Positions 35,001 to 37,793 of a stretch of DNA of 38,484 bases are shown piece by piece; positions within the stretch are counted from its first letter, which is position 1, and each line of letters opens with the position of its first letter. Origin of the DNA: Acidobacteriota bacterium (GTDB taxonomy: Bacteria; Acidobacteriota; Vicinamibacteria; Vicinamibacterales; UBA8438); contig DQNS01000135.1 of NCBI GenBank assembly GCA_015659035.1, positions 1-38,484 of the forward strand. Reading direction: 5' to 3'. The notes beneath the pieces were generated by a model that did no database searches, was not told where the DNA came from, and saw only the letters and a program-made list of their open reading frames with translations. The position numbers and the translations under genes are program-made.

Positions 35001-35846
35001 CTACCGCCGGGGCACCGTTCCCTCGATCGGCGCAACACTCTCGGATGCCTCGAGCGCCGCACGCGCCCCGCCACGGATGAGCGAGGTCGTGCCCGGGCCC
35101 TGGAAGAACAGGAACCCGTCGCGGTTGCGCCAGGCTGAGGGTCCACCCAGGATCTTCCCGGCTCCCAGGGTGTCGTCGTGGATCGTCGTGACCAGCGCCT
35201 CGTACTCCGGATCCCCCTGGCGCTTGCCCGAGAAGCTGCCGAGGTCGCTGCTGGCGACGAACACAACGTCGACCCCGGGGACGCCCGCGATCTCGGCCGC
35301 TCGCGCGACACCGTCCGGCTGCTCGATCATCGCGATAACCATGATGTTGTCGTTCGCGGTCCGCCGGTAGTCACGACCCCACAGGGCGCCGTACTGGCCG
35401 CCCCCCTGGCTTCGGATACCTTCGGGGGGGTACTTCGCGTATTTGACGGCGTCCTGCATTTCCTCCGGCGTGATGACCATCGGCACGATGATGCCCAGGG
35501 CTCCGATGTCGACCGCCTTCTGGATGTCGCCCTCGGTTGCGTCCGGGACGCGGATGAACGGAATGGCCGGCGCATCCTTGCAGGCCCAGATCATCCGGGC
35601 GACCTCCTGGTAGCTCAGCGGGCTGTGCTGCATCTCGATCCAGATGAAGTCGAACCCGGCGTTGGCCATCGCGCAGTAGATCTGCGGGTCCGGGGTCGAG
35701 ACGGTGCCGCCGACGATCTGTTGTCCCTCCATCAGCTTCTGCTTCGCCGTGTTGTAGATGCGACCCTGCGCCTCGGCGGCCGAGACGGCTACTAGACCCA
35801 CAATTGCGAAAACGACGCCTGTCCGGACGATTTGTGTCGCGCGCAT
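35001..35846 (-). CDS. HpcH/HpaI-type aldolase with a signal peptide
   Basis: 281 aa. The N-terminus (MRATQIVRTGVVFAIVGLVA, then AAEAQG) is a clear export signal, unusual for a family that is normally cytoplasmic. The TIM-barrel core is intact: FIWIEMQHSPLSYQEV, FIRVPDATEGDIQKAVDIG, PEGIRSQGGGQYGALW, the metal Glu in AMIEQPDGV and the metal Asp in FVASSDLGSFSG. It probably catalyses aldol cleavage or condensation of 2-oxo acids outside the cytoplasm, or has been recruited for another function. It is followed upstream by an exported NIPSNAP protein on the same strand, 30 bp away. Confidence 0.85.
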   Translation of the reverse strand: MRATQIVRTGVVFAIVGLVAVSAAEAQGRIYNTAKQKLMEGQQIVGGTVSTPDPQIYCAMANAGFDFIWIEMQHSPLSYQEVARMIWACKDAPAIPFIRVPDATEGDIQKAVDIGALGIIVPMVITPEEMQDAVKYAKYPPEGIRSQGGGQYGALWGRDYRRTANDNIMVIAMIEQPDGVARAAEIAGVPGVDVVFVASSDLGSFSGKRQGDPEYEALVTTIHDDTLGAGKILGGPSAWRNRDGFLFFQGPGTTSLIRGGARAALEASESVAPIEGTVPRR

Positions 35847-35876: not shown

Positions 35877-36323
35877 CTACTTCAGGCCCGAGAAGTCGGT
35901 CGCTTCCATGAAGACCGCTACGGGTGCCTTGGCGAGGATCCGGCCGTCCACCTGGGATGCCCGGCTCACTTCCTGCCATTCGGGGTCGGCGATGAAGTTC
36001 TTCCAGCTCTCGGTTGCGGCGTCCCGGCTGTCGTGGGCGATGATGTAGATCAGCGTGTTTTCTGACTCCGGCGCGTCCTGCGGCACCCAGTAGGCTATGT
36101 TCTCGATGCCGTGCTTTTCAAAGATCCGCCTGGTGTGGTCGCGGAAGCGGGCCAGCAGGTTGGGCAGCTTGCCCTCATTCGTCGTATACGTTCGGAGCTC
36201 GAACACCTTGCCGTTCGATTGCGCCTGGACGACGGTGTTCGGCTGCCACAGGGTGCCCGCGGCGAAGCCGGCAACAAAGACCGCGACGGCGAAAACAACG
36301 AGATAATGTCTGCTGGTTGTCAT
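35877..36323 (-). CDS. NIPSNAP family protein, exported or membrane-anchored
   Basis: 148 aa. The N-terminal hydrophobic segment (HYLVVFAVAVFVAGFAAGTL) ends before VVQAQSNG, giving either a signal peptide or an anchor. The remainder is a dimeric alpha/beta-barrel NIPSNAP domain: VFELRTYTTNEGKLPNLLAR, IFEKHGIENIAYW, NTLIYIIAHDSRDAATESWK and DPEWQEV. The biochemical role of the family is unsettled. It forms a same-strand pair with the exported aldolase. Confidence 0.87.
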   Translation of the reverse strand: MTTSRHYLVVFAVAVFVAGFAAGTLWQPNTVVQAQSNGKVFELRTYTTNEGKLPNLLARFRDHTRRIFEKHGIENIAYWVPQDAPESENTLIYIIAHDSRDAATESWKNFIADPEWQEVSRASQVDGRILAKAPVAVFMEATDFSGLK

Positions 36324-36533: not shown

Positions 36534-36968
36534 TCACGTCGGTCCCGTGCTCGCTCGATCGTCGAGACGGGCGGAGAGCCACAGTATCGACAGACCGAAG
36601 AGGAACACGAACGGTCCCTCCCAGAGCGCCCAGGACAGCGGCAGCCCCTCCAGCCAGTCCACCCCCAGCAGGACCACTCCGAACACCGCCGTCGTCGCGC
36701 CGAGATACCGCACGACGGGGCGATAGCGGACCAGGTCGAACGAGACCACCCAGAACAAGCCCCCTTCGATGGCGTAGAACGCCGAGGTCGACCGCGCCAG
36801 ATAGCCGACGATCGGTGCGTCCGGTAGCCGGCCGAGTCCTAGATCGGCGTGAATCGCGACCATCCAGGACTCCGGTGCCACGACGAAGATGAGCGCGAGC
36901 AGCGACGCGCTGCCGACCACCCTGAGCAGCAGTTTGAGCGCGGCGACAGTCGATGGTTCGGTTCCCAT
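36534..36968 (-). CDS. Small four-TM membrane protein, unrecognised
   Basis: 144 aa with four hydrophobic segments (about 10-30, 60-78, 84-102, 112-130). Notable stretches are LARSTSAFYAIEGGLFWVVS and RYRPVVRYLGATTAVFG. No catalytic motif is visible and the family is not recognised. The C-terminus is polar. The ATG at 36968 has no strong ribosome-binding site. Confidence 0.65.
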   Translation of the reverse strand: MGTEPSTVAALKLLLRVVGSASLLALIFVVAPESWMVAIHADLGLGRLPDAPIVGYLARSTSAFYAIEGGLFWVVSFDLVRYRPVVRYLGATTAVFGVVLLGVDWLEGLPLSWALWEGPFVFLFGLSILWLSARLDDRASTGPT

Positions 36969-37176: not shown

Positions 37177-37620
37177 TCAGGGCGTGTGTGTCGCGAAGAC
37201 CGTCATCTGGCCGTCGTCGTCGAACGAGATGACGGCGAACTCCTGCGGGTTCGGGCCTTCCATGCCTGGTGCGCCGACCGGCATGCCGGGGACCGAGATG
37301 CCCGCAATGTCCGGCCGCTCCTTGAGCAGCCGTTCGATGTCTTCGGCGGGGACGTGTCCCTCGATGACGTAGCCGTCGACCAACGCCGTGTGGCAGGAAC
37401 CCAGCCGTGGGGGCACCTCGTTCTCGATCTTGATCGGTCTGACGTCAGGCACGTCGGTCGTCCGTACCGTGAAACCGCTGTCTTGGAGATGTGAGACCCA
37501 TCCCATGCAACACCCTCACGTGGGTGACTTGTAGACCTCGATGACCGGTTTCTGGCTCTGTGCGGTCGTCGAACCGAAACCGACCAGCAGCAGGAACATC
37601 GCTGTGAGTAGAGTGCGCAT
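37177..37620 (-). CDS. DUF411/CopG-like protein with in-frame TGA: candidate selenoprotein
   Basis: 147 aa if the TGA at 37516-37518 is read as selenocysteine (U35). The ATG at 37620 has AAGGAG 6 nt upstream. Residues 1-20 are a signal peptide (MRTLLTAMFLLLVGFGSTTA). The core is VIEVYKSPT-U-GCCMGWVSHL. DUF411 proteins have VYKSPTCGCC here, so Sec replaces the first Cys of CxCC. The rest is a full family match: GFTVRTTDVPDVRPIK, PPRLGSCHTALVDGYVIEGH, VPAEDIERLL and ISVPGMPVGAPGME. Known CopG proteins have a thioredoxin-like fold and bind copper through these cysteines. The normal stop is also TGA (37177-37179). A standard gene caller would report only the C-terminal part from 37506. The alternative, a nonsense mutation, is less likely given the hairpin. 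Confidence 0.85.
37483..37510 (-). promoter_or_regulatory. SECIS-like hairpin
   Basis: On the minus strand, GGGATG pairs with CATCTC (one G.T) closing the loop GGTCTCA, with a lower TTG/CAA stem below a three-base CAT bulge. The loop GGTC falls 18-21 nt after the TGA. In E. coli fdhF the GGUC loop lies 19-22 nt after its UGA, and that hairpin also has a bulge. The element lies within the coding sequence, as bacterial SECIS elements do. Confidence 0.7.
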
Positions 37621-37793
37621 ACAAGCTCCTTCAACTAACGGGAATATGCGACGGCGCTCGGGGCCACAACCCCAAGCATATCAGGCTACTCGTTGCGCGG
37701 CGCATTGGCAACCCACCTGTGCGCGTTCCGTTTCTTGGCGCCCCGCCCCGTTCCGCATCGTCTCCCCGTTGTCTCTCCCCGTGTCTCGACCGA

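What the first reader, a model, noticed from the sequence alone, without database searches (positions are those of the whole stretch)
37177..37620. Candidate DUF411/CopG selenoprotein with Sec in the CxCC metal site
Directly seen: an intact signal peptide plus DUF411 domain interrupted only by TGA, at the exact column where the family has the first Cys of CxCC (SPT-TGA-GCC). Both sides match the family in one frame. Many other genes here stop at TGA, so the code is not reassigned. Known: DUF411 CopG proteins are thioredoxin-like copper-binding proteins. Inference: Sec replaces a copper-ligand or redox Cys, which would tune redox potential or Cu(I) binding. I do not recall this family as an established selenoprotein family.
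Basis: partly seen in the sequence, partly recalled or inferred. Interest (0 to 1): 0.93.

Follow-up and report, generated by a model that had tools for sequence, protein, structure and literature searches.

The report
Selenium-containing CopG-like copper protein
In this bacterium and 68 other genomes from two bacterial phyla, the gene for a CopG-like protein has a TGA "stop" codon exactly where relatives encode a copper-site cysteine; the TGA is predicted to be read as selenocysteine, which would likely put selenium into a copper site, and this selenoprotein family is missing from the 2026 catalogue that was checked.

Summary
The gene (minus strand, 37620-37177) is an intact DUF411/CopG gene with one in-frame TGA, at codon 35, the first Cys of CxCC. 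The host genome has selA, selB, selD and a tRNA-Sec. Of 162 genomes of the order 91 have DUF411; in their 94 loci this codon is TGC in 48, TGA in 42, TGT in 3 (one not covered). It is also TGA in 5 of 15 loci elsewhere in the phylum and 21 of 46 loci of a Chloroflexota class. Codons before the TGA are under purifying selection. A SECIS-like hairpin fits in 44 of 47 acidobacterial Sec genes (30 of 60 Cys genes); Chloroflexota show none above their Cys background. A single clade of all Sec forms is rejected (p-AU 7e-5). The other ligand-like residues of CopG are kept (76 of 76 Sec loci). A 2026 review of 119 selenoprotein families and NCBIfam lack it. That selenium ligates or tunes copper is inferred: no copper gene lies among the 24 other window ORFs scanned. 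Verdict: a new, recurrent selenoprotein form of a known copper-protein family.

The parts
37177..37620 (-). DUF411/CopG-like gene, 147 codons with TGA (Sec) at codon 35, terminal TGA
   Evidence: PF04214 97.7 bits
37516..37518 (-). in-frame TGA, predicted Sec codon, first position of UxCC (CxCC in relatives)
   Evidence: TGA at this column in 42 of 94 loci of the order
37470..37515 (-). predicted bacterial SECIS; apical stem GGGAUG/CAUCUC at 37504-37499 and 37491-37486, loop GGUCUCA at 37498-37492, 17 nt after the TGA
   Evidence: the outer part is from a single-sequence fold
37507..37512 (-). C37 and C38, the two remaining Cys of the motif
   Evidence: Cys in 76 of 76 Sec loci at both columns
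37261..37404 (-). Pfam DUF411 domain, residues 73-120, with C76, H77, H89, M113, M120
37558..37620 (-). signal-peptide-like N-terminus (residues 1-21)
   Evidence: reading translation, no predictor run; conserved MRTLL-type start in relatives
37626..37632 (-). Shine-Dalgarno-like GAAGGAG
37177..37506 (-). 109-codon ORF starting at the ATG of codon 39: the form in which databases record relatives

Best explanation
The gene has TGA at the exact codon where its relatives encode the first cysteine of the CxCC motif, and this TGA is predicted to be translated as selenocysteine, giving a probably secreted CopG/DUF411 protein whose selenium likely serves as a ligand and redox-active atom of a copper cluster. 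Shown: intact frame, position, conservation of the TGA, Sec machinery in the genome, selection before the TGA, a SECIS-like hairpin after it, and conservation of the other ligand-like residues. Inferred: SelB delivers Sec-tRNA at the UGA with the help of the hairpin; a signal peptide takes the protein to the periplasm; UGCC with the two Met of VPGMPxGxPGM holds Cu(I) as CxCC and two Met do in CopG; the selenolate binds soft Cu(I) tightly and is easy to re-reduce, so that Cu(I) is buffered, oxidised or handed on. I hold Sec at about 0.95 and copper handling through the selenium at about 0.6; the confidence given is for the whole statement, weighted to its first part.
For: Codon 35 is TGC 48, TGA 42, TGT 3, not covered 1 in all 94 loci of the order; TGA in 5 of 15 further loci of the phylum and 21 of 46 loci of a Chloroflexota class. 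selB, selA, selD over cut-off and tRNA-Sec over gathering score in the host. dN/dS 0.31 for codons 2-34, 0.15 for codons 24-34, 0.22 after the TGA. SECIS model met by 44 of 47 acidobacterial Sec sequences against 30 of 60 Cys ones; folding stronger than synonymous shuffles. U35, C37, C38, C76, H77, H89, M113, M120 in 76 of 76 Sec loci. The AlphaFold2 model (pLDDT 90.8, Cys in place of Sec) matches CopG 6wis/6wje at TM 0.90-0.92 by target length, next best E 0.01. Review passages: CopG binds a tetranuclear Cu cluster by CxCC and two Met (PMC7558416).
Against: No direct evidence of selenium or copper. SelB is about as common beside Cys forms (32 of 48) as beside TGA forms (33 of 42), p 0.24, so co-occurrence shows capacity only. 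Chloroflexota Sec genes show no SECIS above their Cys relatives (6 of 22 against 6 of 21). Covariation in a 16-sequence group does not beat shuffles. A pooled synonymous control gives only p 0.023 within Acidobacteriota. No copper gene among 24 other window ORFs scanned with Pfam.
Confidence: 0.72

Rival explanations
1. It is a selenoprotein, but the selenium works as the catalytic selenol of a thioredoxin-like thiol/disulfide or metalloid reductase in the periplasm, and copper is not its main partner.
For: Residue 35 stands between the first strand (27-31) and first helix (36-47), the active-site place of thioredoxin folds; most characterised selenoproteins are thioredoxin-like oxidoreductases (PMC13188914 section 7); no copper gene among 24 other window ORFs.
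Against: All ligand-like residues of CopG, including the two Met, are kept in 76 of 76 Sec loci; the fold matches CopG far better than thioredoxins.
Confidence: 0.27
2. The TGA is a true stop; the cell makes a shorter protein from an internal start, or the gene is decaying.
For: An ATG follows the TGA at codon 39 in the window, and 23 of 69 distinct TGA sequences have ATG (43 of 69 ATG, GTG or TTG) within the next seven codons; databases record the 109-residue form.
Against: Codons before the TGA are under purifying selection; the other 46 of 69 have no ATG there; the short form lacks the first strand and the motif; TGA, never TAA or TAG, stands at the column in the loci read.
Confidence: 0.03
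3. TGA is read as another amino acid, by a changed code or near-cognate readthrough.
For: The frame through TGA is open in the loci read.
Against: 3 of 7 neighbouring genes and the gene itself end in TGA; the whole Sec machinery is in the genome; relatives have Cys at the column, apart from one locus with Ala at all motif positions.
Confidence: 0.02

Closest known systems
CopG (DUF411, PF04214), P. aeruginosa, PDB 6wis/6wje
   Same: Same Pfam family and fold; CGCC aligned with UGCC; the C76, H77, H89, M113 and M120 columns kept
   Different: Sec codon in place of the first Cys; no linked copper genes seen in the window
(2Fe-2S)-binding CopZ-type selenoproteins and SO_0444 Cu/Zn efflux selenoprotein (PMC13188914 Table 1)
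   Same: Selenoproteins linked by name to copper handling
   Different: Other domains (cd10141, NF033936) and other motifs; not DUF411
Thioredoxin-like selenoproteins, e.g. Sec.1 and Sec.2 (PF13192), HUIPC type (PMC13188914 Table 1)
   Same: Named thioredoxin-like in the table, with a UxC, CxU or UxxC motif
   Different: Different family; no DUF411 domain, no UxCC with two Met
Mercuric transport selenoprotein (PF02411), Sao and UXX-star selenoproteins (PMC13188914)
   Same: Sec proposed as a metal ligand
   Different: Other families; linked to Hg or organometals, not copper

Membership tests
DUF411 / CopG | Pfam PF04214 over its gathering score | tested here: met
   97.7 bits, cut-off 27
DUF411 / CopG | CxCC motif, or Sec at its first position, with two conserved Met | tested here: met
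   UGCC; strictly CxCC is not met because the first codon is TGA; M113 and M120 present
DUF411 / CopG | CopG fold | tested here: met
   predicted model, TM 0.90-0.92 by target length to 6wis/6wje
DUF411 / CopG | binds a tetranuclear copper cluster | not testable with these tools
   only residue conservation
DUF411 / CopG | gene linked to copper export or oxidase genes (often, not always) | tested here: not met
   24 other window ORFs scanned, none copper-related by Pfam name; not a defining feature of the family
bacterial selenoprotein (criteria as in PMC13188914 sections 5-6) | in-frame TGA aligned with a conserved Cys of homologues | tested here: met
bacterial selenoprotein (criteria as in PMC13188914 sections 5-6) | TGA-containing homologues in other organisms | tested here: met
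   68 other genomes
bacterial selenoprotein (criteria as in PMC13188914 sections 5-6) | bSECIS downstream of the TGA | tested here: met
   window: loop GGUCUCA 17 nt after TGA, -12.0 kcal/mol; for Chloroflexota relatives not met
bacterial selenoprotein (criteria as in PMC13188914 sections 5-6) | SelA, SelB, SelD and tRNA-Sec in the genome | tested here: met
bacterial selenoprotein (criteria as in PMC13188914 sections 5-6) | selenium in the protein | not testable with these tools
   needs 75Se labelling or mass spectrometry

The most novel reading that the evidence does not exclude
A widespread natural selenolate-copper protein: selenium is a direct, bridging ligand of a periplasmic polynuclear copper cluster, and Acidobacteriota and Chloroflexota have switched many times between the sulfur and the selenium form of this cluster.
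Probability: 0.45. Interest if true: 0.86.

Novelty: new variant of a known kind. Interest (0 to 1): 0.74.

Why it matters
It adds a selenoprotein family that the 2026 catalogue and gene callers miss (its relatives are recorded as 109-residue pieces), it is common among the DUF411 genes of one acidobacterial order and one Chloroflexota class, and it offers many natural Sec/Cys pairs of one small protein whose Cys relative has been crystallised. That makes the question of what selenium does for a metal site directly testable. The review names Mo, Fe, Zn, Hg and As as examples of metals bound near Sec; copper is not among these examples, though two copper-related transport or chaperone families are in its table.

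Tried and rejected
Rejected: sequencing error or pseudogene (TGA conserved, dN/dS under 1 on both sides); changed code; internal start as the rule. Stops TAG and TAA reported inside some matches looked like other recoded codons; they are the genes' own terminal stops. ARAGORN did not see the tRNA-Sec, which lies at a contig end; Rfam's model did. Rfam found nothing in the window at gathering thresholds. SelB co-occurrence was tried as a test and is not informative. A SECIS for Chloroflexota was sought in seven windows round the TGA without success. Covariation in the f13/f3 group is not above shuffles.

Rows dropped: loci whose match does not reach column 35 (L188, L267, L268, L276); repeated downstream sequences (76 Sec loci, 69 distinct); for the clade test six long or odd rows (L275, L187, L186, L264, L265, L266), rows under 105 residues, loci reached only through, and near-identical rows, leaving 111 rows of which 47 are Sec. 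Neighbour comparison covered 46 TGA loci, most with 1.5 kb flanks; neighbours outside the window were not scanned for families. Not read because not held: Hausrath 2020, the CopG structure paper, and Haft and Tolstoy 2025. Seen only as citations, not looked up: Deng 2026, Haft and Gwadz 2023.

Full report
What is there. On the minus strand, 37620 to 37177 is one frame of 147 codons that starts at an ATG with GAAGGAG before it and ends at TGA. The only interruption is TGA at codon 35 (37518-37516). The product has a signal-peptide-like start (my reading; no predictor was run) and a DUF411 domain at 97.7 bits against a cut-off of 27. The one solved relative found is CopG of P. aeruginosa (6wis/6wje, E 7.4e-31); there the TGA falls on the first Cys of CGCC. 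Gene callers cut the gene: of the 120 listed database relatives (of 7993 hits), 30 are 108-109-residue pieces that start MGWV just after the site, and the other 90 are longer proteins with a CxCC motif. The host is an acidobacterium by the titles of its nearest named relatives (L015, L016), the second titled Vicinamibacterales.

Is it more than chance? A search of 162 genomes of the order found DUF411 in 91. I read the DNA of all 94 matches. The codon at column 35 is TGC in 48, TGA in 42, TGT in 3; one match (L188) does not cover it. None has TAA or TAG there. Of the 25 genomes of the window's family with DUF411, 24 have TGA and one has TGC. No genome has both forms. A sample of 396 genomes of the phylum had 43 with a match; its 15 loci outside the order give 5 TGA, 7 TGC, 2 TGT, one not covered. 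A class of Chloroflexota (396 genomes, 45 with a match, 46 loci; it also holds the genome of L050, titled Anaerolineae) gives 21 TGA, 17 TGT, 5 TGC, 1 GCA, 2 not covered. One more Chloroflexota genome (L068) has TGA. That makes 69 genomes (42 + 5 + 21 + 1). Of the 80 best loci of a species-wide scan 8 have TGA, titled Acidobacteria, Vicinamibacterales, Vicinamibacteria, Anaerolineae or Chloroflexi, and 72 have Cys.

Can the host make selenocysteine? By gene content, yes. The window's genome (3.18 Mb, 150 contigs, 89% complete) has selB (349.8 bits), selA (526.8) and selD (291.1), each over its cut-off, and a tRNA-Sec over its gathering score (51.9 against 47) at a contig end; I read its anticodon as UCA. 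Of the 42 TGA genomes of the order, 33 have SelB over cut-off; 8 of the other 9 have SelA over cut-off and the ninth (74% complete) a partial SelA of 126.6 bits. Of 44 Chloroflexota-class genomes searched 39 have SelB over cut-off; 3 of the 21 TGA genomes do not. SelB is about as common beside Cys forms of the order (32 of 48, p 0.24), so this shows capacity, not a link.

Is the part before the TGA alive? In 16 close relatives dN/dS, summed over pairs, is 0.31 for codons 2-34, 0.40 for the signal-peptide part (2-23), 0.15 for codons 24-34 and 0.22 after the TGA. Of 69 distinct TGA sequences 23 have an ATG, and 43 an ATG, GTG or TTG, within the next seven codons, so an internal ATG is not the general rule. 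In the AlphaFold2 model (Cys for Sec, pLDDT 90.8) residue 35 stands between the first strand (27-31) and first helix (36-47); the short ORF would lack that strand.

SECIS. In the window a six-pair stem with loop GGUCUCA lies 17 nt after the TGA, which fits the bacterial model given in PMC13188914 section 5. The model is met by 44 of 47 distinct acidobacterial Sec sequences against 30 of 60 acidobacterial Cys sequences and 34 of 66 Cys sequences of other groups; a GG or GU near the loop start is seen in 35, 8 and 14. Folding is stronger than synonymous shuffles: mean z -1.32 for the window's family (22) and -2.02 for other Sec genes of the order (18), against -0.42 for Cys genes of the order (51), p 0.0015 and 1e-6. 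With mononucleotide shuffles it is -2.2 (43 Sec, three of them Chloroflexota) against -0.51 (48 Cys of the order), p 6e-9. Against this: a pooled synonymous control gives only p 0.023 within Acidobacteriota; covariation in a 16-sequence group does not beat shuffles (96 of 500 as high), though 96% of cells pair against at most 56% when slid; and Chloroflexota show nothing above their Cys relatives (6 of 22 against 6 of 21, z -0.02 against -0.01). Their signal, if any, is of another form.

History. On a quick tree of 218 proteins the Sec/Cys label needs at least 17 changes, but many forks are weak and the well supported ones force only 2. With 111 thinned rows 15 changes are needed, and a tree in which the 47 Sec rows are one clade is rejected (p-AU 7e-5). 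One well supported pair (98) holds a Cys and a Sec row, L119 and L143. The counts cannot tell gain from loss.

How it likely works. A review (PMC7558416, passages read) says that CopG proteins are periplasmic, help copper resistance without oxygen, bind a tetranuclear copper cluster by CxCC and two Met, and have been proposed to oxidise Cu(I) and to hand copper on. Apart from the first Cys, C37, C38, C76, H77, H89, M113 and M120 are kept in 76 of 76 Sec loci (which of the last five bind copper I did not establish beyond the review's 'two methionines'). The model matches CopG (TM 0.90-0.92 by target length, 1.3-1.5 A) far better than any thioredoxin. I therefore infer a copper site in which selenium is a ligand and the redox-active atom. 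Copper as the partner is the weaker step: none of 24 other window ORFs scanned is a copper gene by Pfam, and the neighbours shared by the window's relatives (NIPSNAP, a small membrane protein, DUF2817) are not either. A thiol or metalloid reductase is the main rival.

Is it known? Table 1 of PMC13188914 (May 2026; 119 families and subfamilies; sections 5, 6, 7 and 10 read) has no DUF411, PF04214 or CopG. NCBIfam release 20 gave no selenoprotein or DUF411 model for it. No held paper contains both DUF411 and selenoprotein; 42 papers hold DUF411 (the term also matches longer numbers), and the 40 listed titles do not name selenium (listing); CopG with selenocysteine gave 12 papers, none on this by title (listing); two searches gave nothing on it (listings). 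PMC12013277, PMC5029168 and PMC2398784 were searched for terms only and do not contain 'copper'. Papers that might list it but were not read are named under Tried and rejected, so prior publication cannot be excluded. It is a new selenoprotein family inside a known protein family and a known recoding system: a new variant of a known kind.

Noticed in passing
L264 (genome G352, Chloroflexota class), DUF411 locus: The motif reads AAAA instead of CGCC (codon 35 GCA, codons 37-38 also Ala): a DUF411 relative that seems to have lost the metal-site Cys.
   Followed up: no
window 35001-35846 (-) and 35877-36323 (-): An HpcH/HpaI aldolase-like protein and a NIPSNAP protein, both with signal-peptide-like N-termini (my reading), lie near the DUF411 gene; a NIPSNAP-like ORF is shared by 21 of 46 TGA loci compared.
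   Followed up: partly
L009 1-89 (G000 contig C68, minus strand): The tRNA-Sec gene ends at the contig edge; ARAGORN misses it, Rfam RF01852 finds it at 51.9 bits.
   Followed up: yes
Chloroflexota Sec loci such as L200-L228: No canonical bacterial SECIS was found after the TGA although SelB is present in most of these genomes; third codon positions look more conserved at some codons than in Cys relatives (not tested).
   Followed up: partly
window 36534-36968 (-): A 144-residue hydrophobic protein without Pfam match lies downstream of the DUF411 gene; similar ORFs occur beside it in many relatives of the family.
   Followed up: no
L140 (genome G150): The only genome of the window's family, among 25 with DUF411, that has Cys (TGC) at the column; it groups beside Sec rows of the same family (support 93), so it may be a Sec-to-Cys reversal.
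   Followed up: partly
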